A DNA stretch of 57,735 bases, from NCBI GenBank assembly GCA_029068555.1, contig JAIECJ010000131.1, forward strand, positions 1 through 57,735. The letters are read 5' to 3'. Of this stretch, positions 22,110 to 53,945 are shown in pieces. Position numbers and translations under genes: made by a program. The stretch is from Lachnospiraceae bacterium. Lineage in GTDB: Bacteria; Bacillota; Clostridia; Lachnospirales; Lachnospiraceae. Positions within the stretch are counted from its first letter, which is position 1. Each line of letters opens with the position of its first letter. The notes beneath the pieces were generated by a model. That model saw nothing but the letters and a program-made list of their open reading frames with translations. It did not search any database and was not told the origin of the DNA.

Positions 22110-22179
22110 AACTGTTCACAAACAACTTATGACAATGACATCCAGGCAAGTCATTGTCATAAGTTATCCGCTAACAGTT
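22110..22179. terminator. large hairpin between convergent genes
   Basis: Perfect 16-bp arms (22124-22139 and 22150-22165; inner sequence GACAATGAC and GTCATTGTC) surround a 10-nt loop, with outer 7-bp arms AACTGTT (22110-22116) and AACAGTT (22173-22179). It fills the gap between a plus-strand gene ending at 22107 and the minus-strand operon ending at 22171. It lacks a T run, so it may end transcription only with help or act as an mRNA 3' barrier. It would be the 3' end of the 32-kb CIS operon. Confidence 0.6.
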
Positions 22180-22638
22180 TATATATTTCACTATTGTCAG
22201 TATATTTTTATCATTCTCGTGACGATAAGATAATTCGTCCATAATATTTTTTACCATATAAATGCCAAGCCCGCCAATTTTCCTGTCCTGCGCGCCGAGC
22301 GTAATATCAGGGTCTGGTTTTTCCAAGGGATTATATCTGACACCCCTGTCAGAAAATGTAAGAACCAGTTTCCTGCTGCCATCATTTCTGACTTCGACTG
22401 TGACTTTTCCATCATCCTCTGAATACGCATAATTGCATATATTTACAAAAATTTCTTCTACCGCAATATCTGTCTGTCTTTTTGTCTTTTCATCGCAGCC
22501 AATGCGTTCCATAAAGCTGTTCACAAACAGAGTCACTTCCCCAAGTGCAGTCAGATCTGCATCCAGCGTAATACTTTCGCTGGTCTTGGCATTTCCATTT
22601 TCAGTCTTTTTTATTGTCTTAGACTTTTCCATTTTCAA
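22171..22638 (-). CDS. RsbW/SpoIIAB-type anti-sigma factor kinase-like protein
   Basis: A 155-residue GHKL ATPase. Motifs: DIAVEEIFVNICNYAYSEDD (N box), FSDRGVRYNPLEKPDPD and GGLGIYMVKNIMDE (G boxes). The single-domain size and the N box EEIFVNICNYAY fit serine-kinase anti-sigma factors (RsbW, SpoIIAB) rather than histidine kinases. Its start overlaps the SpoIIE-type phosphatase gene by 20 bp. With the STAS protein at 25708 it completes a partner-switching module. The cognate sigma factor is not in the window. Confidence 0.9.
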   Translation of the reverse strand: MKMEKSKTIKKTENGNAKTSESITLDADLTALGEVTLFVNSFMERIGCDEKTKRQTDIAVEEIFVNICNYAYSEDDGKVTVEVRNDGSRKLVLTFSDRGVRYNPLEKPDPDITLGAQDRKIGGLGIYMVKNIMDELSYRHENDKNILTIVKYINC

Positions 22639-24763
22639 TCTTTTTCACTGCTTTCTTTTTATATATCATGTCAAGCATTGTAATGTCGTCAAACTGCTCC
22701 GCCTCGCCCACAAAAAAATCTACGTCGGACTTTACCGCATTGAGAAGCTGCACCGGCGGCAGGCCGGAATCTTTATTCAGCACTTCCGCCAGCCGTTTCA
22801 TTCCGTACAGTTCCTGCCTTGTATTTGCCGCCTCAGTGACACCATCTGTATATAAAAATATTCTGTCTCCTGGCATCAGATCCAGCTCTCCCTGTGTATA
22901 TTGTACGCCGTCCATACCTGCAAGAACAAATCCCGGATTCACCTGATAAAGCTGATAAATACCGTTTCTGTCAGTGATAAACGGCGGTTCATGTCCGGCA
23001 TTCACATATACCATATGACCGGTCTCCAAATCCAGCACCCCTTCAAAAGCGGTGATAAACAATCCCTCCTCGTTGGACTCGCAAAGCAGCCTGTTCACCG
23101 CAGTAAACACATCGCCAAGTGCCGTTTCAGGCTTCGTGTGATCTTTTATCAGCGTCTTACCGATGACCATAAACAACGCTGCCGGAACACCTTTCCCAGA
23201 CACGTCCGCCATCACCATAGCCAGATGGGTATCATCCACCATAAAGAAATCGTAAAAGTCGCCGCCGACCTCCTTTGCTGGTGTCATGGTGGCATAAATG
23301 TCAATCTCCTCCCGCTCAGGAAATGCAGGAAATATGTTCGGCAGCATATCTGCCTGTATCTGTGTTGCCACTGACAGCTCCGCACCGATTCGTTCCTTTT
23401 CAGCGGTAATCAGTGTTATCTGATTGATATAAGTGTGCAGGTCATCCAGCATATCGTTAAACGCCGCTGCCAGATTCCCGATTTCGTCTGCAGATTCCAC
23501 TTCCACTTTTGTATCAAATTCCCCTTTTCCAATCTGCTCGACACTGCGCGACAGTTTCTGAATCGGTCTGGTGATGCTTCGCGCCACCGCAAAGGAAAGC
23601 ACCATTACCATAATACCGGCAGACACAAAGAATATTACAAATTTCTTCATAACTTCGGACAAAAAATCTTGTGTAAACTCCTGGGCATCGCCTGTAATCT
23701 GGTCTATCGTCTCCTTTGTATCGAGTGCGGGTTTGATAACCTCGTCCCGATCAATGCTGATGCACAGGCACCAGCCTGTCTCTTCCAGAATTGAAAACGC
23801 CACATAACTGTCAATACCATCCAGCGTCAGATTGACAATACCGGAGCTTTTCCCGCCTAATTTCTGCGCCTTCTCCAATTGGCCGCCTGTCTGTATATGT
23901 GCGTCGATATCTTTCTGAAAATCATTCTCAAAGTAGTCTGGATGAGCTATCAGCTGTCTGTCTTTGTCCATCACAAAGGCATAACCGCTCTGTCCTATCT
24001 TTGCTGTAGAAATTTCGCCAAGCATATCCTGCAGTCTGATATCCGACGCAACGACACCTGCCACATTCCCCTGTACATCGCGGAATGTCCTTGCGCTTGT
24101 GATGCACATATGTCCATATGAATCCGTGTACGTGTCAAGCCAGATGGTCTTGTCAGGATGGTCTAGCGCACTATGATACCATTTTTGCTCCCGTGGGTCG
24201 TAGGACTGGTCATAAAGATTCGATTTGGAATACCTGTATGATATACCACTCCTTGTACCCACATAGATATTGTCAAGCATATTGTTTTCGGACAAGCTGG
24301 CTCCGAAAACAGCCTCACAGTTTGACAAAAGGCGCACTTCACGCCAGATGTCGTCTGTCACGCTTACGTTCGGCGCCAAAGCATATTTTGAACAGGGCTC
24401 ACCGTCCACTGTCTGGTCAGGCAGCGGCAGGTTTCTGCCTATAAATCCTTCACTGTTTGCATAGAGATATTCAATATATCCCGCCGCCGTCGTGACCATC
24501 CGGCTGATTTCACGCATTTCCTGATTAGAATACATAGCCTGTTTACCAGCAATTTTGGTCAGGTATTCCTCCGCCTGCCCCTGCAGTGCCTCCTTGCTGT
24601 CATCGGACGCTGTAAGGCCAAGACTGACATTCGTATGCTGAAACACATCGCTTAATCTGTCTATGGAAAAATATGCATTGGCAAATGCAATTATCAGCGT
24701 CCCAAGGGACATAAACAGTACAACAAGCAGAATTTTAATACCAATTTTCATGTTTTTAAACAT
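22619..24763 (-). CDS. RsbU/SpoIIE-type PP2C phosphatase with Cache and HAMP domains
   Basis: A membrane phosphatase of about 714 residues. It has an N-terminal TM segment (about residues 6-28), a large extracellular dCache-like domain to about 370, a second TM near 385-405, HAMP (TRPIQKLSRSVEQIGKGEFD) and a C-terminal SpoIIE/PP2C domain with GGDFYDFFMVDDTHLAMVMA and DVSGKGVPAALFM. It should dephosphorylate a STAS antagonist in response to an external ligand. The ATG of MFKNMK was chosen because AAGGAGGG lies 10 nt upstream; an ATG eight codons earlier has no site. It overlaps the neighbouring gene on each side. Confidence 0.92.
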   Translation of the reverse strand: MFKNMKIGIKILLVVLFMSLGTLIIAFANAYFSIDRLSDVFQHTNVSLGLTASDDSKEALQGQAEEYLTKIAGKQAMYSNQEMREISRMVTTAAGYIEYLYANSEGFIGRNLPLPDQTVDGEPCSKYALAPNVSVTDDIWREVRLLSNCEAVFGASLSENNMLDNIYVGTRSGISYRYSKSNLYDQSYDPREQKWYHSALDHPDKTIWLDTYTDSYGHMCITSARTFRDVQGNVAGVVASDIRLQDMLGEISTAKIGQSGYAFVMDKDRQLIAHPDYFENDFQKDIDAHIQTGGQLEKAQKLGGKSSGIVNLTLDGIDSYVAFSILEETGWCLCISIDRDEVIKPALDTKETIDQITGDAQEFTQDFLSEVMKKFVIFFVSAGIMVMVLSFAVARSITRPIQKLSRSVEQIGKGEFDTKVEVESADEIGNLAAAFNDMLDDLHTYINQITLITAEKERIGAELSVATQIQADMLPNIFPAFPEREEIDIYATMTPAKEVGGDFYDFFMVDDTHLAMVMADVSGKGVPAALFMVIGKTLIKDHTKPETALGDVFTAVNRLLCESNEEGLFITAFEGVLDLETGHMVYVNAGHEPPFITDRNGIYQLYQVNPGFVLAGMDGVQYTQGELDLMPGDRIFLYTDGVTEAANTRQELYGMKRLAEVLNKDSGLPPVQLLNAVKSDVDFFVGEAEQFDDITMLDMIYKKKAVKKIENGKV

Positions 24764-25680
24764 TTTGGATCTGCCCTCCTTCCCCATGCAGATATTAATA
24801 TTCCACTGATTACATCTTCATACCGCATACCGGAGTACACTGCCGCTTTCGGCAGCAGGCTGTCCCTTTTAAGCCCTGGGACTGCATTCATCTCGAGCAT
24901 ATATGGTCTTTGTGTTCTGTCAGATACCATAAAATCCACCCTTGCCACATCCCGCGCGCCAATATATCTGAAAATGTTTCCTGCAAGCATCTCCATTTCA
25001 TCAAGACAACTTTCCGCAAGCTTCGGAACTGCTATATCATACGCCCCTGTGAATAAAATCATCTCTTTTGACGCGGGCGCCACGCCTTCCACACACTTTA
25101 GTGTCACCAGCCTGCCCGCTCTTTCCAGAAGTCCCACCGTATAAAATTTTCCCTCGACATACTCCTCCAAAAGTATGGGATCGTCATAGCAGAATACTTT
25201 ATCCAGCCTGTCCAGATCAGCAGGCGTCCGTACCAATTCGATGCCATAGCTTCCGCCCTGCGACGGTGCCTTGGCAACAAAGGGAAATCCAATTTCATTA
25301 AAATCAAATCCTCCCTGGCAAAATGCATCCTTATGTAATATTTTCCATTTTGGAGTCGGAATTGCATAATATTCAAATAAAAGCTTGCACAATATTTTAT
25401 TATTCATCACCATGGCTGTCTCCGCTCCGCTGCCGGTATACGGGATTTGTTCGTGTGTGAGCATCGCCTGTAAAGTGCCGTCTCCGTGATGTTTTCCCTG
25501 CACACACAGATAAACGATATCTATGTAACTTTTTCGTATAGTCTCAATCATGTTCTGTTGATATTCCAGCATACAGACTGCATATCCTTCTGTTTTTAAG
25601 GCCGCTTCAACTGCCATTGCATTTTTCCGGGAAGCCTCCGCTTCACTGGAAGTACCACCGTACACAATACCAACTCTCAT
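24748..25680 (-). CDS. D-Ala-D-Ala ligase-like ATP-grasp enzyme
   Basis: A 310-residue ATP-grasp protein. VGIVYGGTSSEAEASRKNA resembles the Ddl start (GGxSxExxVS), and the C-terminal ARVDFMVSDRTQ then MLEMNAVPGLKRDSL matches the Ddl Mg/ATP region. The usual HGxxGEDG loop is altered to QGKHHGDGTLQ, so substrate choice may differ from peptidoglycan D-Ala-D-Ala. It lies between the STAS and SpoIIE-type genes in the CIS operon; a role in modifying a wall or CIS component is inference. It ends 16 bp inside the phosphatase gene. Confidence 0.85.
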   Translation of the reverse strand: MRVGIVYGGTSSEAEASRKNAMAVEAALKTEGYAVCMLEYQQNMIETIRKSYIDIVYLCVQGKHHGDGTLQAMLTHEQIPYTGSGAETAMVMNNKILCKLLFEYYAIPTPKWKILHKDAFCQGGFDFNEIGFPFVAKAPSQGGSYGIELVRTPADLDRLDKVFCYDDPILLEEYVEGKFYTVGLLERAGRLVTLKCVEGVAPASKEMILFTGAYDIAVPKLAESCLDEMEMLAGNIFRYIGARDVARVDFMVSDRTQRPYMLEMNAVPGLKRDSLLPKAAVYSGMRYEDVISGILISAWGRRADPKCLKT

Positions 25681-25707: not shown

Positions 25708-26007
25708 TTATTCTATTGTCAAGATCGAGTCAAAGCCAGTCATATGCAGCACTTCCATGACTGCCTCCGCAACATGCAGCAGCTTCATATATCCTGCCTT
25801 TGACATTGCCGTTTTATGTCCCAGAAGCAGCGCGCGCAGTCCCGCACTCGCCACATATTCCACTTTTTCAAAGTCAACCACAAGCTTATTGGAGCCTTGG
25901 AATGCCGTGATAATAGCATCCTGCAGTTCCTTACTGGTGTTTGCATCCACCCTGCCCTCCACTGTCAAAATAATTTCTGGTCCGTTTGCTGTCCGCTCAA
26001 TATTCAT
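25708..26007 (-). CDS. STAS domain anti-sigma factor antagonist (RsbV/SpoIIAA type)
   Basis: A 99-residue single STAS domain. VEGRVDANTSKELQDAI and the helix-cap motif VEYVASAGLRALLLGH contain the predicted phosphorylated serine S54 (VASAGLR, equivalent to the DSSGLG site of SpoIIAA). It would be phosphorylated by the RsbW-type kinase (22171) and reactivated by the SpoIIE-type phosphatase (22619). It overlaps the preceding gene by 11 bp, tying its expression to the CIS structural genes. Confidence 0.92.
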   Translation of the reverse strand: MNIERTANGPEIILTVEGRVDANTSKELQDAIITAFQGSNKLVVDFEKVEYVASAGLRALLLGHKTAMSKAGYMKLLHVAEAVMEVLHMTGFDSILTIE

Positions 26008-26776
26008 CCGTTTGCTGTCCTCCTGTCAATACACAATATTCTTTGTTTCTACCAATCTTCAATTCCGCCACGGTCACACCATCACGCCAAAACCGAATTT
26101 TTTCACAGCGCTCCTCCCAGTGCTGATATGCGATGATAAAGCTTCCGCTGCTGTCTGGAATCAGCTTTGCAGCCATATATATCTTTGCACTTTCCTTGCG
26201 AAAAGCCTTCTTCATTCCTCCCTTGACGCGGTAACTGTATTCGGAAGTGTCCGTCTGTCCTAAAAGAGTCACATATTCACTTTCCCCATTTTCACAGAGC
26301 AGAACAATCCGTTCCTCTGCAATTCCGTCAATCCCCCAGAGCCGGATAACCTCATCTCCCGGCGCCGTCGTTTCCATGAGCTTATATTTTGTATTATCTG
26401 TAATCCACACGGCATACAACGCTCCAGCCGCTTTACCCCCTGCACATCTGCCGCGGATTACTGTCATGTCTGCTGAAAAAGGATAACCTGCTGCGGGCTG
26501 CATCCATAGATAACGTATCACCGGCTTATTATCCTCTGGCAGACAGATATACAGCTGCCTGTCCACATAGACTCCCCCTGACACCATAATGTCCATACTG
26601 CATTCCCCAGGCTGCGCAAGTATGACCGCACAGTCTGCACCTTTCCACAAAACCTTATTCTGCTGCCGCACCTTAACTGTGATGCCTGCTTTTCCATCCG
26701 TTTTTGTCACCCACCGCCGTGTGACAGCATCAATAAACCTGAGCACGACAGCCACCTTTGTATGCACAATTCCCAT
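25997..26776 (-). CDS. CIS operon protein of unknown function (beta-rich)
   Basis: A protein of about 259 residues with no confident family. It is rich in predicted beta strands with an early VVLRFIDAVTRRWV segment and a KVRQQNKVLWKG stretch, reminiscent of small Ig-like or carboxypeptidase-regulatory-like domains encoded beside DUF4255 genes; this resemblance is weak. No signal peptide is present. The ATG giving MGIVHTKVAVV was preferred because GGAG lies 9 nt upstream. It lies 27 bp after the DUF4255 gene and overlaps the STAS gene. Confidence 0.6.
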   Translation of the reverse strand: MGIVHTKVAVVLRFIDAVTRRWVTKTDGKAGITVKVRQQNKVLWKGADCAVILAQPGECSMDIMVSGGVYVDRQLYICLPEDNKPVIRYLWMQPAAGYPFSADMTVIRGRCAGGKAAGALYAVWITDNTKYKLMETTAPGDEVIRLWGIDGIAEERIVLLCENGESEYVTLLGQTDTSEYSYRVKGGMKKAFRKESAKIYMAAKLIPDSSGSFIIAYQHWEERCEKIRFWRDGVTVAELKIGRNKEYCVLTGGQQTDEY

Positions 26777-26803
26777 ATGATTATTCTCCATGTCGATGTA
26801 ATG

Positions 26804-27379
26804 TTACATCTTATGCTGCGATACATTGATATCCACATCGGTAACCCGTGCCGTTTTTCTGCTTATTCCCGAGTCAATCGCAACTGGCGACACCTTATAA
26901 AACAAGGACAGCCTGTTTCCCATATTCGGAAAATTCCATATCTTTGACTTTTCATCCATATCCGGCTTCTGCATCTGGATATACAGCCTCTCTGCACCTT
27001 CTGTCTCCTCCAAAAAAAAGACAGGATTATCATAAAAAAGCTGTATAATGCGTCCCAATACCTGCTCCTCCTGATACAGCCTGTACATCACATCACCTTT
27101 CGTATACGGCGTAATCATGTAATAGAGACTCAGATAAACAGGTGGTCTCGAAATCCTTGTCACCAGATCCTGCTCCTGCACCACTACATTTGACTGCTGG
27201 AAAACTTCCTCGCTCTGTCGTATATCATACAAAAATACGCCCAGCGATACATCCCCTTTGTCCTCAGGGCTTCTAAGCCCGATTTCATCCGTATTCCGTA
27301 TCAGCCCTGGGCACAATGCCTGCTGCAGCATTTCTACCAGTCGTTTCCCCGTGTCCGCTATCATTGTATATTTTCCCAT
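26804..27379 (-). CDS. DUF4255 (Pvc16/Afp16-like) tail terminator protein
   Basis: A 191-residue protein. The N-terminal pattern (MLQQALCPGLIRN, then VSLGVFLYDIRQSEE) and the central SRPPVYLSLYYMITPY are typical of the Pvc16 N-terminal/DUF4255 family, which caps the tube and sheath in CIS particles such as PVC and Afp. A GGAGG-type site precedes the ATG. It sits downstream of the tail protein I-type gene, as DUF4255 genes do near the end of eCIS structural blocks. Confidence 0.88.
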   Translation of the reverse strand: MGKYTMIADTGKRLVEMLQQALCPGLIRNTDEIGLRSPEDKGDVSLGVFLYDIRQSEEVFQQSNVVVQEQDLVTRISRPPVYLSLYYMITPYTKGDVMYRLYQEEQVLGRIIQLFYDNPVFFLEETEGAERLYIQMQKPDMDEKSKIWNFPNMGNRLSLFYKVSPVAIDSGISRKTARVTDVDINVSQHKM

Positions 27380-27394: not shown

Positions 27395-28513
27395 CTATGC
27401 CAAAAAGGTTTTCCCGCCCATTCTGCTGTCCTTGTCCATATGCGCATAACCCTTGCGGAAAAGCGCCGCATTGAAATCCAAAAAGCAGTAGGAGTCAAGA
27501 TTGCTGCATTGTTGCGAAAACACCAGTCGGATATTGCTTCTTGCCGGTTTAAACTGCTTTATCAGATACATTAACTGTGAATGCCGCCTTTTGTCTGCCA
27601 CATGCTTTACGAGGATTGTCACCTCATGCATACTGGAACCGTACAGCTTTTGGTAAGTCATCCTTACATTGTCCGGAATATATCCCTCAAGTCTGTTTCT
27701 TTCTATGATTAGCAAATTATTTAATGCTTCACCGCCAAGCACAATATCTGTCAGCCTTCTGATAACCTCCTTTGTCCCTTTGATGCGGTTTAGATAATAA
27801 AGCTCCTTAACCAGCCTTCGGAGCATTTCCTCGTCAGGAAAATCGCCTTCCGAAGCAAAGCCAAGCCACTCTGCAAGCTCCAGGAGGAAAGGAAACGGTG
27901 TCTTATCAATGTCAAGCAGCCTGTCCAGATTCGCTATCTGATCCGACATATCCTGATAGATGGAGGAAAATATGGACAGATAGCGATGAAAAAATCCGCC
28001 CTCCTCCTGATAAATTTCCGGAAAAGTCCACAGAAAATTATCTCCCTGCGTGTCAAGGCGCATATCATATAACATGCAGCCGACCACATCTTTGTTAATT
28101 CCCCTCTCGATCTCCACTGCAATCCATAGATATTCACCTGTCAAATTATACAGCAAAATGTCCTCATGACCGACAAACGATTCACCGTCCTGCGTAAAAT
28201 GCGCCAGCTTTTTGCTCCATGGCACATCCCCATTGTGAAAATAGCGATTGAGCTCCTCTGCCTGCTGTGGCTGCGCATCGCACGAGAATGCGTAGATTTT
28301 GAGCGTACTGTTCGGCGTCAGTTTGCTTTTACAGCTAAAACGTCCCCACTTTGTCTCTTGCTCATAGCTGCAAAAGCGGTTCAAAATCACAAAATGCTTC
28401 CCTCCCACCGCATTCTCTGCGGTATACAATGCGCTGCCATTTTGTACAAAACCCTCAAAGTAAGCCATGGAAAGCTTTGTCCCGCTGACTGTATAAATTT
28501 TTTTGTGTTGCAT
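27395..28513 (-). CDS. phage tail protein I-type baseplate component
   Basis: A 372-residue protein. The C-terminal half has the TIGR02242/gpI-like pattern: FPEIYQEEGGFFHRYLSIFS, DMSDQIANLDRLLDID, LAEWLGF and a run RRLVKELYYLNRIKGTKEVI, seen in eCIS and phage tail proteins that bridge baseplate and fibres. The N-terminal half (about residues 1-180) is beta-rich and may be the distal part. No separate tail-fibre gene is present in the window, so this protein may carry host contact or anchoring functions (inference). Confidence 0.8.
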   Translation of the reverse strand: MQHKKIYTVSGTKLSMAYFEGFVQNGSALYTAENAVGGKHFVILNRFCSYEQETKWGRFSCKSKLTPNSTLKIYAFSCDAQPQQAEELNRYFHNGDVPWSKKLAHFTQDGESFVGHEDILLYNLTGEYLWIAVEIERGINKDVVGCMLYDMRLDTQGDNFLWTFPEIYQEEGGFFHRYLSIFSSIYQDMSDQIANLDRLLDIDKTPFPFLLELAEWLGFASEGDFPDEEMLRRLVKELYYLNRIKGTKEVIRRLTDIVLGGEALNNLLIIERNRLEGYIPDNVRMTYQKLYGSSMHEVTILVKHVADKRRHSQLMYLIKQFKPARSNIRLVFSQQCSNLDSYCFLDFNAALFRKGYAHMDKDSRMGGKTFLA

Positions 28514-33650: not shown

Positions 33651-33676
33651 CCCTATCATCTCCTGTCGCCGCATAC

Positions 33677-34072
33677 TCATCCTGCATTCAAATAAAATGG
33701 AAAGACAACACTGTCCTTTATATAGCTTTGGGCAAGCGTGTAGTGGACATTCACAATCAGGCACCCTTTGTCAAGTTTTGGCTCCACATTCACATCGACA
33801 TCCAAAATGCGTGGTTCCTGCTCCGAAATTGTCTGTTCAATCTCTCTTGCCATCATATTCATTCTTGTGACCGAGGTGTCCATAAATGTGTAGGATAGCA
33901 GTCTGCTCCCAAAGTTTCTGCGTGTGAACCGCTCGCCTTTCTGCGTCATCAGAATGATATATACCGATTCCTTTACACTCTGCTCACCGTCTGCCATCAC
34001 AATCCTTCCTGTCGCTCTGTTAACCTGAAGCGGAAACTTTAAGCCGCTTCCCAGATATTCCCTGTTTTCCAT
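33677..34072 (-). CDS. gp25/GPW family baseplate protein
   Basis: A 131-residue protein with the gp25 core: ILMTQKGERFTRRNFGSRLL (the family's GER..DFG-type motif) and later MAREIEQTISEQEPRILDVD. gp25 is a universal baseplate wedge protein that nucleates sheath assembly. GGAGAGGGAG precedes the ATG. It is placed between spike and baseplate J genes, the order seen in Afp/PVC operons (afp9). Confidence 0.9.
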   Translation of the reverse strand: MENREYLGSGLKFPLQVNRATGRIVMADGEQSVKESVYIILMTQKGERFTRRNFGSRLLSYTFMDTSVTRMNMMAREIEQTISEQEPRILDVDVNVEPKLDKGCLIVNVHYTLAQSYIKDSVVFPFYLNAG

Positions 34073-43497: not shown

Positions 43498-43539
43498 TTT
43501 TCTCTCCTCTTTACTCAACTGTTTAAGTGTTGCATCGTA

Positions 43540-43929
43540 TTATGAAATAATTACTGTTTTCTGACCAGTATCTATGATGCCAATCGTACCTCCATAACTG
43601 CATACGACTGTTGCCCCACTGGTCAGACAGGGTTTTCCGGCCGCTATGCACGTTGTCTGTGCAGTTATCCATGTACCAGCTACCGCCGGAATACACGGCT
43701 GCGGTGTAAGCACCCCCAGCGCTGCCGCTGTCGCAGATGCTACCTGGGGGTTTGCCATAGATGAACACATTCCACAGCCTGAAATATTGACATTTGGCGC
43801 AAAATCCTGTATTGTCGCAACAGGCTTTCCCTCTGCCAGTACACTGTTCTGCGACGTGACCGAAAGCGTTGCCGGCATTGTACCAAACGGGCATTGCAGA
43901 CTTGCCCCCGCAACAACAACTGCTCCCAT
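43540..43929 (-). CDS. DUF4280 PAAR-like tip protein
   Basis: A 129-residue protein with the DUF4280 pattern: VVAGASLQCPFGTMPATL, then ISGCGMCSSMANPQ, then KPCLTSGATVVCSYGGTIGI, with paired cysteines and glycines. DUF4280 proteins are PAAR-like caps for the spike. GGAGG lies 6 nt before the ATG, which overlaps the stop of the preceding gene (TGATG). The coupling to a secreted coiled-coil protein gene suggests the two are made together. Confidence 0.88.
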   Translation of the reverse strand: MGAVVVAGASLQCPFGTMPATLSVTSQNSVLAEGKPVATIQDFAPNVNISGCGMCSSMANPQVASATAAALGVLTPQPCIPAVAGTWITAQTTCIAAGKPCLTSGATVVCSYGGTIGIIDTGQKTVIIS

Positions 43930-46648: not shown

Positions 46649-48724
46649 TCATTCCCGTTGTATATATACTTCTATCGTGCCTGTTGCAGTATTAAAACTC
46701 CCTTTGTACAGAAGCGTTTCCGACTTGTCGTAAAACACTGCCTGTACCTTGGACAAATCTCCTGCAAGCAGAGACAGATATCGGCTCTCCCTGTCAATTT
46801 CCGTAAGCTCTTTTCCCCAGGTGTCTCCGGCAAGCACATTTCCGGCCTCGTCCTCCAGTCGGTAATACGCTATGGGCTCCGCATTTTGCGGTGTTATGAA
46901 AAGCGTCGCCATTCCAGTGCTGCTGTCCATACCGCAGCTATATGACGCTACCGTTTTTACCGTATTCGCCTGTACCAGTATATAGCCACCCTTGATATCC
47001 ACTTTATCCTGATAAACAGAAGCATCTATTTCACATATATCAACTCGTTTTCCATCATTATACAGGTAAAGTTTCACACTTTCTGTCCGGTCAAGATCCA
47101 GCGCCAAATGCTCCAGATAATCTGCTGTTTTGGTTCGCTCTCCAACCTGTTCCCCGTTTACATATAGTTCAAAATGTGTAATGTCAATGGAAAAGTCCTC
47201 GGGAATGCTCACTCCCAGTCTGAAAAGATTGTCCTCCACCGCATACTCAATATAATAATATGCCTCTCCTTTTATCTCATCTGCGAGAAAACTATTTCCA
47301 CCCGATGCAGCCGTCATATTAATGTCTGTACCCTCAAGGTATGCCGTAATGCCGCCACAAGTCAATCTGTCATAAGCATACAGTAAGCTACTGTACTCTC
47401 CCAGAAGTTCCAGCCTTGCAAGCTGCTGCTGCTCATATTCCTCCTGCATATCGGACAGCTCCTCATATGTAAGCACCCCAATCCTGTTGAGCTGCAGACT
47501 CTTATCCAAATCCTTTTCCAGCGCGTCACATGCCCGAACGGCATCCGAATACGCAAGCTTTGTTGTCTTTACCGTCTCAAAATTATCTTTAACGGCCTGT
47601 GTCAGCTCCTCCTGTGCAGACTTTTTTTCGCGAACAGCATCCGCATACTCCAGTGCACCAGAATACAGAGCATATGGGTCATCCTCCACATATCGGGAAC
47701 CTGCCACTGCCCCCTTAAACCACTCTTTGTTTATTTTGATAAACAGTATCCGTATGTGTCCATCCCACGGCTCGTCGATATTCTTAAGCATCTGGTTGTA
47801 ATCCTTTTTAAACGCAGAACTGTCAATTGTGATGCCTTGCAGCGCCTGCTGGATGTATGGTTCAATTCCATTCATTTTGCTCCCATACTGGTTCCGCATC
47901 ATACTTTTCATCATATTCAGACTCTCAAGGGACAATGATGTCTCAAGTTTTGTCTCATAAAACTGCTGGTCATTGTCAAGTGTATAGTCGACAAGCTGTT
48001 CCAAAATACTTCTTGGAATTTCTGCCTCGACAAAAGGATTTTGAAATAGATAACCGGACGTGACATCGAGGTTGATCAGCTTTGACAGCTGGCTTTTTTT
48101 TGCCTCAAAGGTCCGCATCTGCAATGCAAGATCCGTTGTCAACCGGCTTATTTTCTGCTGCATCTTATCAATATCAGCCTGATCCGCCTCGCCCAAAGCC
48201 AGCTTAATCATGTTATTCTGTAATATCTTTTTTGCCTTTTCCTGACTTTCTTCATAGAAACCTATTTTTTCCTGACAGATATAAGTCTCCACATATACAA
48301 GCGATACGCGCTCCCTGCTCGCCAGCTTTTCGTCGTTGAGCTGATGCTTTAGCCCATTTATTGCACAAGTTATCTGCAGCGGCTTATACTGCCATTCATA
48401 CTCATCATCCAGCGTCGGCTTTTCTGGGAATTTAAAGGAAAGAAGCGGCGTCCAGCGGAATGTCGACATATTTTTTTTCTTCATTTTTATGGATTTGACC
48501 GCCGTTGCATATTTTATTTCCTGTATCTCTATTTTATTTAATATTTTTCTGTATTGTGCCGAGTTGGAAATTGCCATATCCTGTGCTTTTGTGAGTGATA
48601 TCTTTTTTTGCGCCGCCTGCACCGGAGCGCTTATCAGGCTGGAAGCCAAAACAGACTGGAAAAATACTGCCGCAAACAGCAAGTATATAATTTTATTTTG
48701 TTTTTTTGAGCTGCTACTGTACAA
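46649..48724 (-). CDS. TolC-like exported helical protein
   Basis: A 691-residue protein. The signal peptide IIYLLFAAVFFQSVLASSLI then SAPVQAAQ is clear. Residues 40-450 are long paired helices in the style of TolC/outer-membrane factor proteins (ISLTKAQDMAISNSAQYRKI; later TKLAYSDAVRACDALEKDLD then RIGVLTYEELSDMQEEYEQQ). A beta-rich C-terminal domain follows. A Gram-positive cell has no outer membrane, so the fold may span the wall here. The start is TTG with GGAGG 8 nt upstream. Unusual in a CIS operon. Confidence 0.72.
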   Translation of the reverse strand: MYSSSSKKQNKIIYLLFAAVFFQSVLASSLISAPVQAAQKKISLTKAQDMAISNSAQYRKILNKIEIQEIKYATAVKSIKMKKKNMSTFRWTPLLSFKFPEKPTLDDEYEWQYKPLQITCAINGLKHQLNDEKLASRERVSLVYVETYICQEKIGFYEESQEKAKKILQNNMIKLALGEADQADIDKMQQKISRLTTDLALQMRTFEAKKSQLSKLINLDVTSGYLFQNPFVEAEIPRSILEQLVDYTLDNDQQFYETKLETSLSLESLNMMKSMMRNQYGSKMNGIEPYIQQALQGITIDSSAFKKDYNQMLKNIDEPWDGHIRILFIKINKEWFKGAVAGSRYVEDDPYALYSGALEYADAVREKKSAQEELTQAVKDNFETVKTTKLAYSDAVRACDALEKDLDKSLQLNRIGVLTYEELSDMQEEYEQQQLARLELLGEYSSLLYAYDRLTCGGITAYLEGTDINMTAASGGNSFLADEIKGEAYYYIEYAVEDNLFRLGVSIPEDFSIDITHFELYVNGEQVGERTKTADYLEHLALDLDRTESVKLYLYNDGKRVDICEIDASVYQDKVDIKGGYILVQANTVKTVASYSCGMDSSTGMATLFITPQNAEPIAYYRLEDEAGNVLAGDTWGKELTEIDRESRYLSLLAGDLSKVQAVFYDKSETLLYKGSFNTATGTIEVYIQRE

Positions 48725-48748: not shown

Positions 48749-49879
48749 CTATTCTATCCGGTAGAAATCAAAGCCTTTCTCTTTGTCCTTACAAAAAAAC
48801 GTATACAAAACGCCCTCACTTTCATAAACATAGATGTAGGCCTGATATTCCCTGTCAAAACCACTAACTTCCTTTACATCATCATAGACCGAATTTACCT
48901 GATATCCGGCTTTCCCATAAAGAACATCACTTCCGGTTAGTCCGCACATCGTATTTAACGCAATCTCATCCTCCGCGTCCAGAAACGTGTTTCCCTCATA
49001 CACAGGACTTCCAAAAAACCCATGAAGCTGCGCAATATCGCTTAACAGCTCCCCATTCAGACAAATATCCGTCTGAAGAACATACACTCCTGAAACCAGA
49101 AATGTTCCCTCAAGCGTGTTGCTCCTGTCAGCTCCAAAATATATCGCATCAATATCTTTCATATACACGCAGTATGTATCTTCACCCATATAGATTTCCT
49201 TGGCGCCATTATACTTTGCTGCAATCTCTGATGTACTTCTTCCGATAAGTTCCTGATACAAAATCCGGTCATGTCTGAAACTGCCACTGTAAATTTGCTG
49301 CTGTGCTGTATCATACAGTGTCCCTTCCCCCTCCATAAAACCCTGGTTAAAATTTCCCTCATACCACAGCATTCCATTTTCCCGATACAGTTTTCCCGCA
49401 CCACAGTAGCGGTTATTCTGAAACGCCCCCTCATACACAAGCTGTGCATTATCAGAATAATATTTTCCCGTACCGTTATATGCATTGGCATCAAAATCCC
49501 CTTCGTAAACCACATTTCCCTGAATCCCATACAGCGTTCCTTTTCCCTTTACAATTCCACGCTCTACATCCCCTACATACGCCGTGTAACCGGACTTCCC
49601 AAGAATCCGGACTTTTCCTGTGACAAATTTCAGGGACAGCGAATTATACTTATAAGACTTCACTGCATTTTCTCCGTGAAGCTTATCAGGCTTCGAGCTC
49701 CATATCAGTGAGAGGCAAAATACGCTGATAACCGCAGCGACAGCCCAGGCCAGCTTTCTGCTGACAGACCAACGGAGAAAAACATAATAATCATCTTGGT
49801 TTTTTGGTCTGATGTCAAAGAAACGGACAAATAGATTTTTTATGCACCTCATTACATTCAAGAGAATCTCCCCTCTCAT
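48749..49879 (-). CDS. membrane-anchored MORN-repeat protein
   Basis: A 376-residue protein. One TM segment lies near residues 37-58 (LAWAVAAVISVFCLSLIWSS). MORN-type repeats follow: VYEGDFDANAYNGTGKYYSD, VYEGAFQNNRYCGAGKLYRE, WYEGNFNQGFMEGEGTLYDT. The C-terminal half is unclassified. MORN repeats mediate protein or lipid contact. The start is uncertain: the first ATG has a weak site, whereas GGGGAG stands 6 nt before an in-frame TTG and somewhat before a later ATG. Confidence 0.82.
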   Translation of the reverse strand: MRGEILLNVMRCIKNLFVRFFDIRPKNQDDYYVFLRWSVSRKLAWAVAAVISVFCLSLIWSSKPDKLHGENAVKSYKYNSLSLKFVTGKVRILGKSGYTAYVGDVERGIVKGKGTLYGIQGNVVYEGDFDANAYNGTGKYYSDNAQLVYEGAFQNNRYCGAGKLYRENGMLWYEGNFNQGFMEGEGTLYDTAQQQIYSGSFRHDRILYQELIGRSTSEIAAKYNGAKEIYMGEDTYCVYMKDIDAIYFGADRSNTLEGTFLVSGVYVLQTDICLNGELLSDIAQLHGFFGSPVYEGNTFLDAEDEIALNTMCGLTGSDVLYGKAGYQVNSVYDDVKEVSGFDREYQAYIYVYESEGVLYTFFCKDKEKGFDFYRIE

Positions 49880-49890
49880 TTTTTCTGTGC

Positions 49891-51276
49891 TTATCGAAAT
49901 AATTCATGCCCTTCATGCAGGCTGTCCTCACTGTTAAAACGCTCCTCACAAGCAAACACATACCATCTTGCAATTCCGTCTTCCGGACACTCCTCCAAAA
50001 TATCTGCAAAAGTACTTCTCGCAAGATATAAATCGTTATCGTAGTATAACTGCAGTGCGCGCTCGAATTTCTCTTTATTTTTTAGCTTTCCTGCCTTCTG
50101 AGACTGCGGACAGGCATCCAGAATTTCGTGCAGTCGGAAAGTAATCTTACCATCACCAGACGTCACATAACCGATGAAGCGCCCCTGCAAATGTTCCCCT
50201 GCATGCTGCCATGTGCTCTCTGTCACAACAATCCTCGTTCCGCCTGCCTTCAGCTCATCAATATACTGATTCAACGTCTCCATCTCAAGCGATGTCACAT
50301 ACGGATATACCTGTCTGCTCCCTCCTGCCAGTCCACAGCTAAACTCGGAGGTGTGCAGCAGTATAAAAGGCGTTGTATTGTATTCGTCCTCAGTCTGTGC
50401 GGCCAATGCCTCCATACAATCAATGCTGTACCTTACCGCTGCCAGCGCACTCTGCCCCTGAAAGACCACCTTTACATTCTCCAGATTACTGCCATTTTGC
50501 AGGAATATCGCCTTGTCTGATTCCCTCTGTGAAAATAGCACCTCCATAAGCCGGTTCACATACCGCACATATTTTTTCTGGAGCGCTCCTGTCAGCAGCA
50601 CATTCCTGTCAATCATGGCAAGAATACCAAGTGTGGCAACAATCTGCACCGTATCCCCCAGCTCGATATCCTGCAATTTTTCTTTCTCAAAAAGCTGTTC
50701 AAAATTTCTTGGTGTATACTCATACAAATACGCAGTTTCCTTAAAGTGCCGGTATTTCTGAATGCGCAGATTTGTGCACATCCGTTCCAAAGCTGCCCAC
50801 ATCGCCCCAAATTCATTGTCAGGTATCTTTTTATATACACCGACATGATAAGGTGTAATGTCATACTCTCCTCTTGATACCTTATCCATATCAGAAACCA
50901 GGCGCCCCATGCTCTCCCATTGATATGCCAGAAAAACCCTGATTATATGCATAGTCAGCAGCCATCCTGCGAACACTGCAAATATTAGTATTTTAAAATT
51001 TTCCAAATTCTGTAACTGTCTGCGGACGACTGCCATCATCACAATCATCCACACTCCGCTGACACCTGCCAGTATCGTCATAGTCTGGTATAACAGCTTC
51101 TTCTTCATCCATACCAGCTGTACCCAGAGTTCCAGCAGCGTCCAGACTGCGATATATGCCAGTGTAAAGACAGGCAGCGTAACCGCTGAACAAAAACTGT
51201 GAAAATGCGTCCAGGCTCCGCCCGCAACTGAAACTATGTAAATGACGACTGCCAAAAGAATCCTACGTTTCACCAA
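49891..51276 (-). CDS. membrane protein with HAMP-like region and degenerate class III cyclase domain
   Basis: A protein of about 461 residues. Four hydrophobic segments lie in the first 130 residues, then a HAMP-like linker (QWESMGRLVSDMDKVSRGEY), then a domain following the class III cyclase plan: VATLGILAMIDRNVL, VKVVFQGQSALAAVRYSIDC, LLHTSEFSCGLAGGSRQVYP, FIGYVTSGDGKITFRLHEIL. Both metal-binding aspartates (usually in FxDIxGFT and the GDG hairpin) are absent, so it is probably a pseudo-cyclase. A TPR-like tail ends the protein. The start is TTG or the next GTG behind AAGGAG. Confidence 0.75.
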   Translation of the reverse strand: MVKRRILLAVVIYIVSVAGGAWTHFHSFCSAVTLPVFTLAYIAVWTLLELWVQLVWMKKKLLYQTMTILAGVSGVWMIVMMAVVRRQLQNLENFKILIFAVFAGWLLTMHIIRVFLAYQWESMGRLVSDMDKVSRGEYDITPYHVGVYKKIPDNEFGAMWAALERMCTNLRIQKYRHFKETAYLYEYTPRNFEQLFEKEKLQDIELGDTVQIVATLGILAMIDRNVLLTGALQKKYVRYVNRLMEVLFSQRESDKAIFLQNGSNLENVKVVFQGQSALAAVRYSIDCMEALAAQTEDEYNTTPFILLHTSEFSCGLAGGSRQVYPYVTSLEMETLNQYIDELKAGGTRIVVTESTWQHAGEHLQGRFIGYVTSGDGKITFRLHEILDACPQSQKAGKLKNKEKFERALQLYYDNDLYLARSTFADILEECPEDGIARWYVFACEERFNSEDSLHEGHELFR

Positions 51277-51291: not shown

Positions 51292-52164
51292 TCATTGCAC
51301 CAGCGATTCTGTCCCAATCCTCTCCAATGGGCCTCCAAACAGCTTCCAAAACGATAATTCCCCCAAAAACAGATGCCCGGCAGCCAGAAAAATGACAATG
51401 CAGACCAGCACAATGCACCCACAGGCTAACAGTCTGTATATACTGTCCTGTTTTAATGCTGCAATTTTTTTCAGCGTTTCAAATTTCTTCAGCACCGCAA
51501 TTCTTTTGTCACGCGTTTCGTCCAATTTGCTTATCAGCTTTATGTCCCTGTATAACTGCATCCATTCGTGATACTCTTTTCTAACCAGCTTTTTATTGAG
51601 AAGAACAGCTGCCTGAGCGGAAAACGAAGAAATTGTATTTGCTTTATACTCAAGACAACTCAATTCCATAAACAGTTTTGCACAATCTGTCACATTGTCC
51701 TGCTCACAGACAGAATCATCATAATCGGATAAATCCACGAAAAATCCGAAATATACTGCCCCATCCGGTTGTATATTCACTTGTCCCTGATTCAATATCA
51801 GATTCAGCACAGCGTCGGGAATCCCCGAAGTTATGCATTTCGCAGTAAGTTCAAGCCAAATCTGCCGATGAACACAACCAGCATTCTGAATCGTGCCCAG
51901 ATAATACCGCAACAGGGGTCTTTCCTGAAAATAAGGAAACACAAACCCCGCCTTTTCACCTAGCATAAATATTTCCTCACACAGATCCCCAATATTTCCT
52001 ATCAGTGATTTTGCGACTCTGCGATCCTTTACAATCCACACGGTCTTACTAAGTGCCGCCGGCTCTTTGCTATTCCGGCACACAAACACATCATTTGCCT
52101 TTCCTGTAAAGACTTCCCTTATTACTCTGTAATCGTTTTTTCCTGTACTAAAATACCCGGTCAT
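51292..52164 (-). CDS. pseudokinase-like protein with C-terminal membrane anchor
   Basis: A 290-residue protein. The N-terminal 200 residues follow the protein-kinase strand-helix plan (YRVIREVFTGKANDVFVC; then SGIPDAVLNLILNQGQVNIQ then GAVYFGFFVDLSDYDDS where HRD and DFG would be) but lack the catalytic residues, so it is a pseudokinase candidate. A TM segment lies near residues 245-268 (LLACGCIVLVCIVIFLAAGH). The layout is comparable to EssB of type VII secretion, by analogy only. It overlaps the upstream gene by ATGA. Confidence 0.6.
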   Translation of the reverse strand: MTGYFSTGKNDYRVIREVFTGKANDVFVCRNSKEPAALSKTVWIVKDRRVAKSLIGNIGDLCEEIFMLGEKAGFVFPYFQERPLLRYYLGTIQNAGCVHRQIWLELTAKCITSGIPDAVLNLILNQGQVNIQPDGAVYFGFFVDLSDYDDSVCEQDNVTDCAKLFMELSCLEYKANTISSFSAQAAVLLNKKLVRKEYHEWMQLYRDIKLISKLDETRDKRIAVLKKFETLKKIAALKQDSIYRLLACGCIVLVCIVIFLAAGHLFLGELSFWKLFGGPLERIGTESLVQ

Positions 52165-53945
52165 ATTGTCTGCCTTTCCTCTGCTTTATTTTTGCTGACA
52201 ACTGCATACGCATAGGTGGATATCTTCGGCATATCCGTACAATAAATATATATTTCATAGACGCCCTCTTTTGCGGGTGCCGTGTATGTTCCATCGGCAC
52301 TTATCTCTCCGCTGCATGGTTCTGTGAGCTCGTAGCTTAACCGGCAAGGCAGCAGATTTTGAAAACTTATATTAAAGTAAAAGCTTTCTTTTGGATTCAG
52401 ATGTACAGTTGGCATATCCGGCGTAATTGAACAATTTTTCCCCTCCTGTATTTCATCCGAATCCTTTGATGGACTGAATTTGACCGCCACCCAGTTTAAC
52501 TGTAGGACAATGCTTTTCTGTTCTCCCAGAAGCTTTGCTGCCACCTGAAAGCTTCCTTTGTCATTCAAAACCCGTACCGCAGTCTCAACCTGCATACAAT
52601 CATAAATATTAAACAGTTCGGGATTTCCGTAAATCGTATTTCTCCTGTTATTTGTTCCGTGAGGCATATCATCCAGATATTCCATTCCGACTTCCACATA
52701 CACATTCCCTTTTCCAAGTCCATGCATAATTTCATCAGAAAGACACACATCGCCCTTTTTCATACGAACATCCAGCGGAATCTCAATCCGCCCGCCCGCC
52801 ATTTGCATCGGCACATTTTCAGGCTCCGTACCTGTCTGCATTTCCTGTATAAATGGAACTGGTTGATGTTCCACTCTGCTGTCACGCATAAAATATGACA
52901 TCAACAGCTGCCGCTGGTCCGTTTTTTTAGGCGTAACGATATAGTGCCTTGCTTCCTGCTGCGCTGCCCCGCTTATGAGACAGCTGGTATCTGTACGCAG
53001 CAGCTTGAGCGTGGCAATACATACGTCCTCTACCAATTCTTCCCGCATGTCTGTATCCAGACTTACTTTGCCAACTTCACTTGCGGCAAGTTCATATGGC
53101 TGTTGTTCCGACAAAAGCAGCTTCATATTCAGCCCCTTTGCCGGTTCTATCTCATAATCCCCAACCTGAAAGCAGATATCCTCTTTTCTGCAAAGTATAC
53201 TTGTTTCTTCCGCCGTCGAATATTCAGCAAAAATCCAGTATTCCCTGCCCTCCGACTGCCCTTTGAAAAGCGACAGCCTGTCAATGTCAATCCTCAGCTC
53301 ATGACTCCCCTTTGCATCCGTGAAGGCAGGCATCTGTAACGTAATATGTAATGACAGCTCCTTTGCTGTATCGGAGTTTTTACATATTGTCATTGCCAGT
53401 TTTACCATATGCCCTTTGGGAACTGTGTAGGGAATACTGATATATACAGAATAATCTGCATTGTCCATGAGTGTTTCCCACAAGAGAAACGCACTATTTT
53501 TCTCAAAACTTTTTTCTTCATCTTTCAGATAAAGTTCATATCCCTCATCAATACGGTTACTCTCATACTCTCTGCCATCCGTTCCAATATCCCCGCAGTA
53601 CACATCATGGATATTTTCTTCCCGATAGCGGATGTACAAACCTGCAGCATCACCGTTTAGCGTATCAAATCCCTCCATGCCTGAGATCTTTTTAATAACT
53701 GTTGACTCTACGACAATTTCCCGTCCCGCCCCGTCAATGGCAACACCGCTTTCCACCAATATAGACAAATCATCCAGATTGACCACATTCAATCCACAGA
53801 CAATTCCACTTCCAAACAGGACACGGTTCAGAAACCGCCGTTTATTGTTCATATATAACTGTTCCGCTTCGAAGTCTGCCGAGGTCAACAGTTTTCCGGC
53901 ATAATAGCGGTTTCTCTCAAACGGAAACAATTGGTTATTCTTCAC
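52161..53945 (-). CDS. RNRYY-motif CIS-associated protein with Ig-like C-terminus
   Basis: A protein of about 594 residues, first gene of the CIS operon. The N-terminal FERNRYYAGKLLTSADFEAE then QLYMNNKRRFLNRVLFGSGI is a motif recalled from proteins encoded in CIS and tail-like clusters, function unknown. The middle is beta-rich; the last 90 residues (EPCSGEISADGTYTAPAKEG) look like a bacterial Ig-like domain. The GTG at 53945 was chosen: GGGAGG lies 7 nt upstream, and the conserved block starts right after. There is no signal peptide. Confidence 0.72.
   Translation of the reverse strand: MKNNQLFPFERNRYYAGKLLTSADFEAEQLYMNNKRRFLNRVLFGSGIVCGLNVVNLDDLSILVESGVAIDGAGREIVVESTVIKKISGMEGFDTLNGDAAGLYIRYREENIHDVYCGDIGTDGREYESNRIDEGYELYLKDEEKSFEKNSAFLLWETLMDNADYSVYISIPYTVPKGHMVKLAMTICKNSDTAKELSLHITLQMPAFTDAKGSHELRIDIDRLSLFKGQSEGREYWIFAEYSTAEETSILCRKEDICFQVGDYEIEPAKGLNMKLLLSEQQPYELAASEVGKVSLDTDMREELVEDVCIATLKLLRTDTSCLISGAAQQEARHYIVTPKKTDQRQLLMSYFMRDSRVEHQPVPFIQEMQTGTEPENVPMQMAGGRIEIPLDVRMKKGDVCLSDEIMHGLGKGNVYVEVGMEYLDDMPHGTNNRRNTIYGNPELFNIYDCMQVETAVRVLNDKGSFQVAAKLLGEQKSIVLQLNWVAVKFSPSKDSDEIQEGKNCSITPDMPTVHLNPKESFYFNISFQNLLPCRLSYELTEPCSGEISADGTYTAPAKEGVYEIYIYCTDMPKISTYAYAVVSKNKAEERQTI

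What the first reader, a model, noticed from the sequence alone, without database searches (positions are those of the whole stretch)
22171..53945. A 32-kb, 27-gene contractile injection system operon in a Gram-positive, without an AAA+ ATPase
Sequence: 27 minus-strand genes lie with gaps no larger than about 95 bp, many overlapping. Sheath, two tubes, two Afp7-like adaptors, split spike, gp25, two baseplate J proteins, tail protein I, DUF4255 and DUF4280 are all recognisable. Knowledge: eCIS clusters (Afp, PVC) normally also carry an AAA+ ATPase (Afp15), a fibre and a tape measure; phage tails come with capsid and lysis genes. Neither set is seen here. Inference: a non-phage, possibly cell-attached CIS of Firmicutes with its own accessory set.
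Basis: partly seen in the sequence, partly recalled or inferred. Interest (0 to 1): 0.88.

Follow-up and report, generated by a model that had tools for sequence, protein, structure and literature searches.

The report
Injection-machine operon of gut Clostridia
A 27-gene operon in a bacterium of the Lachnospiraceae encodes a phage-tail-like injection machine together with its own predicted membrane and secreted proteins, one of them folded like TolC, and its seemingly missing ATPase is encoded elsewhere in the same genome.

Summary
The operon is real: 27 minus-strand genes, 22171-53972, largest gap 44 bp, with a contractile injection system (CIS) core and no recognised capsid, terminase or lysis gene. 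'No AAA+ ATPase' holds for the operon, not for the genome: an orthologue with intact Walker motifs lies on contig C125, and 17 of 30 named relatives have one in the fetched stretch 3' of the sheath. Over 60 genomes ATPase and sheath go together (17 of 19 against 2 of 41).
Two features look new. (1) Envelope genes g02-g06; g05 has a TolC-type fold and occurs in 10 of 11 clade-A genomes and 0 of 49 others, in a genome without Omp85 or OEP match. (2) A partner-switch module; a STAS gene directly follows g21 in 19 of 30 relatives.
Best reading: a chromosomal, envelope-anchored, T6SS-like CIS, nearest in sheath to the haloarchaeal one. CIS identity is near certain; anchoring, the role of g05 and the switch's target are inferred. 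New variant of a known kind.

The parts
52161..53972 (-). g01, 603 aa, Cis13-like N-terminal domain
   Evidence: NCBIfam CIS13_fam residues 18-158 E 1.1e-29, under its cut-off; first gene of clade-A clusters, after g21 (Cis12-like) in clade B
51292..52164 (-). g02, 290 aa, kinase-fold domain plus C-terminal TM helix
   Evidence: AF2 pLDDT 86; all 50 Foldseek rows shown are protein kinases, E 1e-6 to 9e-6, TM by query 0.38-0.50; TM in the last 80 residues in 19 of 19 family members
49891..51276 (-). g03, 461 aa, polytopic membrane protein with cytoplasmic C-terminal part (topology inferred)
   Evidence: three or more hydrophobic segments in 43 of 47 family members; profile A4 only weak hits to HAMP-bearing receptors, E 0.03-0.06, and others; E<1e-5 in 49 of 100 loci
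48749..49879 (-). g04, 376 aa, TM helix plus MORN repeats
   Evidence: PF02493 E 1.4e-8; 58 of 100 loci; at least one TM in 52 of 53 family members
46649..48724 (-). g05, 691 aa, predicted secreted TolC-fold protein with C-terminal beta domains
   Evidence: profile to TolC E 2.6e-5; AF2 pLDDT 80; first 44 Foldseek rows are outer-membrane-factor channels; only in clade-A CIS genomes
43929..46604 (-). g06, 891 aa, probably secreted, C-terminal Cu_amine_oxidN1 domain
   Evidence: PF07833 2.1e-6; N-terminal hydrophobic segment in 60 of 77 family members, though none reached the threshold in the window copy
43540..43932 (-). g07, PAAR-like spike tip (DUF4280 type)
   Evidence: IglG PAAR-like 1.3e-5; DUF4280 in related clusters
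41800..43518 (-). g08, sheath
   Evidence: PF04984 4.8e-20, PF17482 4.4e-16; profile A1 to 9ezm 2.4e-145
41276..41770 (-). g09, inner tube
   Evidence: PF06841 2.1e-32; TIGR02241, CIS5_fam, CIS1_fam
40883..41245 (-). g10, tail assembly chaperone-like, CxxC motif
   Evidence: phrog_508 3.1e-9
40662..40931 (-). g11, DUF6760
   Evidence: PF20546 1e-15
40066..40689 (-). g12, second tube or tube adaptor (weak)
   Evidence: PF06841 5.6e-5 under cut-off; CIS5_fam 2.8e-4
37404..40052 (-). g13, 882 aa, candidate tape measure or plug
   Evidence: position; mostly about 620-1800 aa in relatives but 167 aa in L093; no PDB match
36872..37429 (-). g14, CIS_tube (Afp7-like)
   Evidence: PF19266 1.2e-13
36169..36858 (-). 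g15, CIS_tube (Afp7-like)
   Evidence: PF19266 5.6e-10
35003..36184 (-). g16, spike hub half (GPD)
   Evidence: PF05954 5e-6 under cut-off; NF033848 positions 114-351
34095..35006 (-). g17, spike OB half (gpV)
   Evidence: PF04717 4.7e-17; NF033848 positions 360-526
33677..34072 (-). g18, gp25 / sheath initiator
   Evidence: PF04965 1.3e-19
30711..33764 (-). g19, baseplate J-like
   Evidence: TIGR02243 6.5e-18, under cut-off
28553..30709 (-). g20, baseplate J-like
   Evidence: phrog_6 1.7e-10; TIGR02243 7.8e-24, under cut-off; PDB 9gtp J-like chain 4.5e-16
27395..28513 (-). g21, Tail_P2_I / Cis12-like
   Evidence: PF09684 3.8e-4; TIGR02242 2.2e-15, CIS12_fam 9.6e-15
26804..27379 (-). g22, Pvc16_N tail terminator
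   Evidence: PF14065 6.6e-28
25997..26791 (-). g23, partner of the terminator gene; in most relatives the pair sits before the PAAR gene
   Evidence: HMM of the c009 family finds g23, E 8.4e-6; order
25708..26007 (-). g24, STAS anti-anti-sigma-like protein
   Evidence: PF01740 3.2e-13; Ser of an S(A/M)GL motif kept in 24 of 24 aligned
24748..25680 (-). g25, D-Ala-D-Ala ligase-like ATP-grasp protein; perhaps a passenger
   Evidence: PF07478 2.1e-23; otherwise seen only in G033 among the loci searched
22619..24787 (-). g26, dCache-HAMP-SpoIIE (PP2C) phosphatase
   Evidence: PF07228 2.7e-44, PF02743 4.3e-23, PF00672 6.5e-17
22171..22638 (-). g27, RsbW-type HATPase kinase
   Evidence: PF13581 6.4e-28
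   Evidence: PF02518 2.3e-15; family in 15 of 30 related 3' stretches; segments
55000..55497 (+). divergent protein with bacterial SH3 domain and N-terminal hydrophobic segment
   Evidence: PF08239 5.5e-11; segment 11-29; family in 12 of 30 related 3' stretches
20809..22107 (+). convergent protein with N-terminal hydrophobic segment and nucleoside-hydrolase-like domain
   Evidence: PF01156 3.5e-8, just under cut-off; segment 5-23; in two similar clade-B clusters (L111, L113) the domain follows MORN repeats of the g04 kind in one protein, 60-64% id over about 300 aa

Best explanation
A chromosomal, non-phage CIS of the eCIS lineage, adapted to a monoderm envelope. Shown by profile, model or gene distribution: a sheath, tube, baseplate, spike and terminator core; an eCIS-type AAA+ ATPase encoded in trans; a conserved set of predicted membrane and secreted proteins (g02-g06); a TolC-fold protein found only with this CIS; a recurrent STAS/PP2C/HATPase module. 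Inferred: particles assemble in the cytoplasm and dock baseplate-first on the membrane through Cis12/Cis13 (g21, g01) and the anchors g02-g04; g05 and g06 prepare or hold a site in the wall; and the phosphorylation state of STAS, set by HATPase kinases (g27, the GHKL protein) against the Cache-sensing phosphatase g26, gates assembly, docking or expression. Firing is then outward from the living cell, in T6SS manner.
For: Core. ATPase in trans: (62% id over 1-686 of the sister protein), Walker A and B present, co-occurrence 17 of 19 against 2 of 41, in 17 of 30 fetched 3' stretches of relatives. Envelope set: TM in 19 of 19 g02 and 52 of 53 g04 family members; order. g05; in 10 of 11 clade-A genomes against 0 of 49, and in 3 of 196 across the class, all three with the sheath on the same contig. 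Own genome without Omp85 or OEP match. Nearest solved sheath is the haloarchaeal T6SS, reported as membrane-bound with Bacillota Cis11 as nearest relatives (PMC11566945, passages). STAS next to g21 in 19 of 30.
Against: No experiment shows particles, anchoring or secretion. STAS, PP2C and HATPase could simply control a sigma factor; PP2C was found in 9 and an RsbW-type kinase in 10 of the 30 stretches only. In 13 of 30 no ATPase passed the threshold (6 of these stretches stop at a contig end; one, L161, has a partial match there), and G007 (97% complete) and G019 (88%) have the CIS but no ATPase match. The OEP model does not detect g05 itself, so the empty OEP search does not exclude other distant TolC-like proteins. 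A TolC trimer's bore is far narrower than a CIS tube (recalled), so g05 as a plain sleeve for the spear is unlikely at that stoichiometry. No g05 or g06 match was found in the clade-B loci (sheath 52-56% id), so these are not needed for every such CIS. The g02 kinase match is moderate (TM about 0.45).
Confidence: 0.6

Rival explanations
1. A released eCIS (Afp/PVC-like): particles set free by lysis that bind targets through fibres; the membrane genes then serve regulation or self-protection.
For: The core matches eCIS families CIS1/5/12/13 (below their cut-offs), and the terminator is Pvc16_N.
Against: No lysis gene and no fibre recognised in the operon; conserved envelope genes next to the core, one being a TolC-fold protein exclusive to it.
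Confidence: 0.2
2. A cytoplasmic, self-acting CIS as in Streptomyces, where particles meet the membrane through a bitopic protein (CisA) under stress and kill the producer.
For: Streptomyces coelicolor sheaths rank second among solved relatives (8bky, 8bl4, 9gtp, 9gts); g02 and g04 are predicted bitopic; stress-type partner switch in the operon.
Against: Secreted g05 and g06 have no counterpart in the passages read; sheath closer to the haloarchaeal system, reported as acting on other cells.
Confidence: 0.2
3. A domesticated prophage tail or R-type tailocin.
For: Tail genes are homologous to phage tails; a tail-assembly-chaperone-like gene (phrog_508).
Against: 0 of 1586 phage records cover 80% of the sheath, all under 60% id; Pvc16_N and eCIS-type ATPase present; no capsid, terminase, portal or lysis families among those shown for 90 proteins of three related clusters (25 of 40 and 25 of 51 families were displayed); housekeeping flank.
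Confidence: 0.03
4. A truly ATPase-free CIS lineage.
For: No AAA+ in the operon; G007 has the CIS and no ATPase match at E 1e-30.
Against: Orthologue in trans in the same genome; ATPase two genes from g01 in G013 and G016 and in 17 of 30 fetched 3' stretches of relatives.
Confidence: 0.05

Closest known systems
Haloarchaeal T6SS (Halogeometricum borinquense CIS, clade IIa; PDB 9ezm; PMC11566945)
   Same: Closest solved sheath to the family profile (E 2.4e-145); eCIS-type core; associated membrane protein; that paper finds Bacillota Cis11 nearest (passages read).
   Different: No TolC-fold protein or partner switch in the passages read; different envelope; its 6-TM protein Hbor_38620 was not compared with g03.
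Streptomyces coelicolor CIS (8bky, 8bl4, 9gtp, 9gts; PMC12237407, PMC10020575, PMC10066040)
   Same: Gram-positive host; second-closest solved sheath; Cis12/Cis13-type proteins; bitopic membrane factor linked to the cluster.
   Different: CisA has a solute-binding-like outer domain and is encoded downstream of the baseplate genes (passages read); the ATPase lies in the cluster there, here in trans; no secreted TolC-like protein in what I read.
Afp / PVC eCIS
   Same: Core gene set, Pvc16_N terminator, AAA+ ATPase.
   Different: Envelope genes g02-g06; no recognised fibre; STAS/PP2C/HATPase genes; ATPase unlinked in this genome.
TolC / OprM outer-membrane factors
   Same: Helix-hairpin topology of g05.
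   Different: Short beta hairpins only (90-98, 323-332), extra C-terminal beta domains, host without Omp85 match; found only with the CIS.
Rsb / SpoIIA partner-switching systems
   Same: STAS with conserved Ser, SpoIIE-type PP2C, HATPase_c_2 kinase.
   Different: Sits in a CIS operon; target unknown; no sigma factor family met among the operon proteins scanned.

Membership tests
eCIS-type contractile injection system | Sheath, tube, gp25, baseplate J, spike and PAAR core in one cluster (core domains listed in PMC8213781, section 10 read) | tested here: met
   DUF4280 and Baseplate_J by Pfam only in related clusters
eCIS-type contractile injection system | Pvc16_N tail terminator (named as distinguishing in PMC10020575) | tested here: met
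   PF14065 6.6e-28
eCIS-type contractile injection system | AAA+ ATPase encoded by the genome and associated with the system | tested here: met
   C125:11030-13045, co-occurrence, in 17 of 30 fetched 3' stretches
eCIS-type contractile injection system | ATPase within the same genomic region ('invariably', PMC10020575) | tested here: not met
   none in the operon; unlinked beside Tex and ABC transporter genes in G000 and G033
eCIS-type contractile injection system | Released, extracellular particles | not testable with these tools
   needs microscopy; hence filed as a CIS of the eCIS lineage, not as a proven extracellular CIS
Bacterial T6SS (Tss type) | TssJLM membrane complex, TssK, ClpV (recalled) | tested here: not met
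   no such Pfam family among the 26 of 27 operon proteins scanned; not sought genome-wide
Archaeal (haloarchaeal) T6SS | Sheath of the same clade | tested here: inconclusive
   best solved match 9ezm, E 2.4e-145, but no tree was built
Archaeal (haloarchaeal) T6SS | Homologue of the 6-TM protein Hbor_38620 | not tested
   its sequence was not fetched
Prophage / R-type tailocin | Capsid, terminase, lysis genes or phage-like sheath | tested here: not met
   (15 of 40 PHROG and 26 of 51 Pfam families not displayed)
TolC-type outer-membrane factor (g05) | Two long helical hairpins in TolC order | tested here: met
TolC-type outer-membrane factor (g05) | Outer-membrane beta barrel strands | tested here: not met
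   strands of 3-4 residues only in the monomer model
Rsb-type partner switch | STAS + kinase + PP2C in one operon | tested here: met
Rsb-type partner switch | Cognate sigma factor as target | tested here: inconclusive
   no sigma factor family among the operon proteins scanned; none sought genome-wide

The most novel reading that the evidence does not exclude
A monoderm-specific outward-firing CIS: gut Clostridia have re-used a TolC-type alpha-barrel protein as the wall-spanning part of an anchored injection machine, and a phospho-STAS partner switch reading an extracellular Cache ligand acts on the machine itself (docking or firing) and not on a sigma factor. It would be a T6SS counterpart for thick-walled bacteria, present in many gut and rumen Clostridia.
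Probability: 0.3. Interest if true: 0.88.

Novelty: new variant of a known kind. Interest (0 to 1): 0.62.

Why it matters
How a contractile spear could act from a thick-walled monoderm cell is open. This cluster offers a defined candidate anchor set (g02-g06), with a TolC-fold protein in a genome that shows no outer-membrane assembly gene. It also warns that surveys which demand an ATPase beside the cluster would misread such genomes, and it links CIS to partner switching, for which I found no paper in the searches listed.

Tried and rejected
ATPase-free lineage: rejected for this genome, left open for G007. Prophage or tailocin: rejected. g03 as a nucleotide cyclase: my first guess by eye, no profile support, dropped. 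g06 and g13: no useful PDB relatives. Long ORFs after the ATPase in relatives as effectors: four of five had no Pfam family, one has a calpain-type protease domain; effectors of the window cluster remain unknown. A haloarchaeal comparison through the plasmid collection failed, because pHBOR03 was not among the 15 rows shown of 175 records. The terminator excess in the right half is unexplained. A first count of TM segments in g04 (55 of 57) wrongly held four nucleoside-hydrolase-like proteins that the clustering had put with g04; recounted as 52 of 53. Chen et al. 2019 (eCIS clades) is not held, so clade IIa is taken from PMC11566945.

Papers: PMC8213781 outline, sections 7 and 10 and passages; PMC10020575, PMC12237407, PMC11566945, PMC10266427, PMC12961389 and PMC12608077 passages only; PMC10066040 one passage of its reference list and its data statement; the rest search listings. 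Searches: 0 papers; 2; 8; 1; 20 of 79 listed; 2; STAS domain with contractile injection: 0; 12 of 7,555 listed, none with 'contractile injection', so of little weight; 12 of 401 listed; the one that held all three terms, PMC12608077, concerns Pseudomonas tailocin sensitivity. None that I saw describes this cluster, STAS with a CIS, or a TolC-like CIS protein. The library lacks most subscription papers.


Full report
Observation. The operon is as described: 27 minus-strand genes (22171-53972), largest gap 44 bp, 11 of 26 junctions overlapping, 99.9% coding. Profiles name the core: sheath, tube, weak second tube, two CIS_tube proteins, hub and spike as two halves of a VgrG-related model, gp25, two J-like proteins, Tail_P2_I/Cis12, Pvc16_N, Cis13-like g01 and a PAAR-like protein. 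The left flank carries ribosomal proteins L2, L4 and L3 and NAD-metabolism genes, an ordinary chromosomal setting. The right end, after 55.5 kb, holds what look by eye like transposase and other broken mobile pieces.

Relatives. With the sheath as query, 20 of 60 related genomes (own included) match. One of the 20 (G031) is weak at 1.4e-5, which leaves 19 with a clear homologue. Two groups appear: clade A (71 of the 80, sheath 60-89% id, the window's kind) and clade B (9 of 80, 52-56%). Gene order g01 to g21 is conserved in clade A. The DUF4255 gene and its partner sit before the PAAR gene in most relatives and at the 3' end in the window and its nearest kin; an HMM of that partner family finds g23 (8.4e-6).

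The ATPase. No AAA+ gene lies in the operon. In two sister genomes (G013, G016) an AAA+ protein lies divergently, with two genes between it and g01. Used as query it finds an orthologue in the window's own genome, C125:11030-13045, 62% id over residues 1-686, with Walker A and B, between Tex and ABC-transporter genes; G033 has the same arrangement. Over 60 genomes, 17 of 19 with a sheath at E<=1e-100 have an ATPase match at 1e-30, against 2 of 41 without (Fisher p 7e-11, kinship not corrected). The two exceptions with a sheath are G007 and G019. In 30 named genomes (29 clade A and L102 at 55%) I fetched about 10-20 kb 3' of the baseplate genes, 40 kb in two: 17 have the ATPase there, and of the 13 others 6 stretches stop at a contig end. 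The claimed absence is thus most simply a relocation in this lineage.

Envelope genes. g02 has a C-terminal TM helix in all 19 family members, g04 at least one TM in 52 of 53 and g03 three or more in 43 of 47; g05 and g06 have N-terminal hydrophobic segments in 45 of 59 and 60 of 77 family members. The g02 model (pLDDT 86) has a protein-kinase fold; all 50 Foldseek rows shown are protein kinases, TM about 0.45. The layout recalls EssB of type VII secretion (recalled, not tested). g05: a profile of 36 sequences matches TolC (2.6e-5). Its model (pLDDT 80) has two long helical hairpins in TolC order with only short beta hairpins. The first 44 Foldseek rows are outer-membrane-factor channels, E 2.9e-7 to 1.9e-3, TM by target up to 0.61; 37 say so in their titles, 7 have general titles and are so named from recall. 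The family occurs in 10 of 60 related genomes, all clade-A carriers (10 of 11; G034, 71% complete, lacks it). Across the class it is in 3 of 196 genomes, each with the sheath on the same contig; two more of the 196 have a sheath match and no g05. The genome has no Omp85 or OEP match while 7 of 14 controls ring for each; the OEP model does not detect g05 either. A TolC-fold protein in a genome without an outer-membrane assembly gene, tied to a CIS, is the most surprising single result.

Regulation. g24 (STAS), g26 (Cache-HAMP-PP2C) and g27 (RsbW-type) form a partner-switch set. STAS follows g21 directly in 19 of the 30 named genomes and also in G021, G030 and G051; the Ser of an S(A/M)GL motif is kept in 24 of 24 aligned, and that it is the phospho-acceptor is inferred. 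PP2C occurs in 9 and RsbW-type in 10 of the 30; one of each lies in the second stretch fetched for G078. A GHKL kinase (54146-54979) and an SH3-domain protein (55000-55497), divergent from g01 here and in G033, G013 and G016, have relatives in the 3' stretches of 15 and 12 of the 30. The convergent nucleoside-hydrolase-like gene (20809-22107), kept at this place in G033, G007 and G013, is fused to MORN repeats of the g04 kind in two similar clade-B clusters (G017, G020), while a third clade-B copy tested (L116) lacks it; this ties it to the system.

Mechanism. I take this to be an anchored CIS. Its nearest solved sheath is that of the haloarchaeal T6SS (9ezm, 2.4e-145), then Streptomyces coelicolor (entries identified). 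PMC11566945 (passages) reports membrane-bound, contact-dependent action, suggests Cis12 and Cis13 at the membrane, and finds Bacillota Cis11 nearest. Here Cis13-like g01 is followed by predicted membrane proteins g02-g04 and predicted secreted g05 and g06. Steps shown: gene content, predicted folds, linkage. Steps inferred: docking, passage of the wall, outward firing, control by phospho-STAS. A TolC trimer would be too narrow for the spear (recalled), so g05 may form a wider ring, a wall anchor or a gate.

Novelty. CIS genes in Bacillota are known from surveys (PMC11566945 uses them). In the searches listed I found no paper on this clostridial type, on a TolC-like part, or on a partner switch in a CIS; the library is open-licence only. 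I rate it a new variant of a known kind, with a bolder reading at 0.3.

Noticed in passing
G000:C5:15939-16376 (L001): A second sheath gene in the same genome, E 8.5e-25 to PF04984; possibly a prophage or another tail locus.
   Followed up: no
window 55480-57735: By eye: a transposase-like helix-turn-helix frame and fragments of other mobile or regulatory genes just after the SH3-domain gene, where G013 and G016 carry the ATPase; fits loss or relocation by a mobile element.
   Followed up: partly
L105:17139-19873 and L106 start (G007): UvrD-helicase-like and weakly DUF2290-like genes inserted between g11 and g12; the same genome lacks an ATPase match. A decaying or truly ATPase-free copy.
   Followed up: partly
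L132 (G002), L133 (G005): The clade-A-type ATPase lies near a Pvc16_N gene, on another contig than the sheath.
   Followed up: no
L122:2824-3486 and 10 of 30 named genomes: A single ABC ATPase gene, usually within a few genes of g21 or STAS, with no obvious permease beside it.
   Followed up: partly
L130:7049-10593: Beside the relocated ATPase lie ABC, HlyD-like and MacB-like genes, the usual partners of a TolC; chance or link unknown.
   Followed up: no
L146:728-5605, L154:11553-17882, L142:5663-11227, L159:4197-7889: Very long ORFs (1230-2109 aa) near the ATPase in relatives with no Pfam match; candidate cargo.
   Followed up: partly
L118:3086-5845 (clade B): A large BTAD/TPR regulator-like gene beside the clade-B ATPase; clade B seems regulated differently.
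   Followed up: no
L171:9149-11812, L173:9082-11622: PP2C and RsbW-type domains in one protein in two relatives.
   Followed up: no
L102 (55% sheath id): An intermediate cluster: clade-B-like sheath, but g01-g02-g03 and the DUF4255 pair in clade-A order, without g05 and g06 matches.
   Followed up: no
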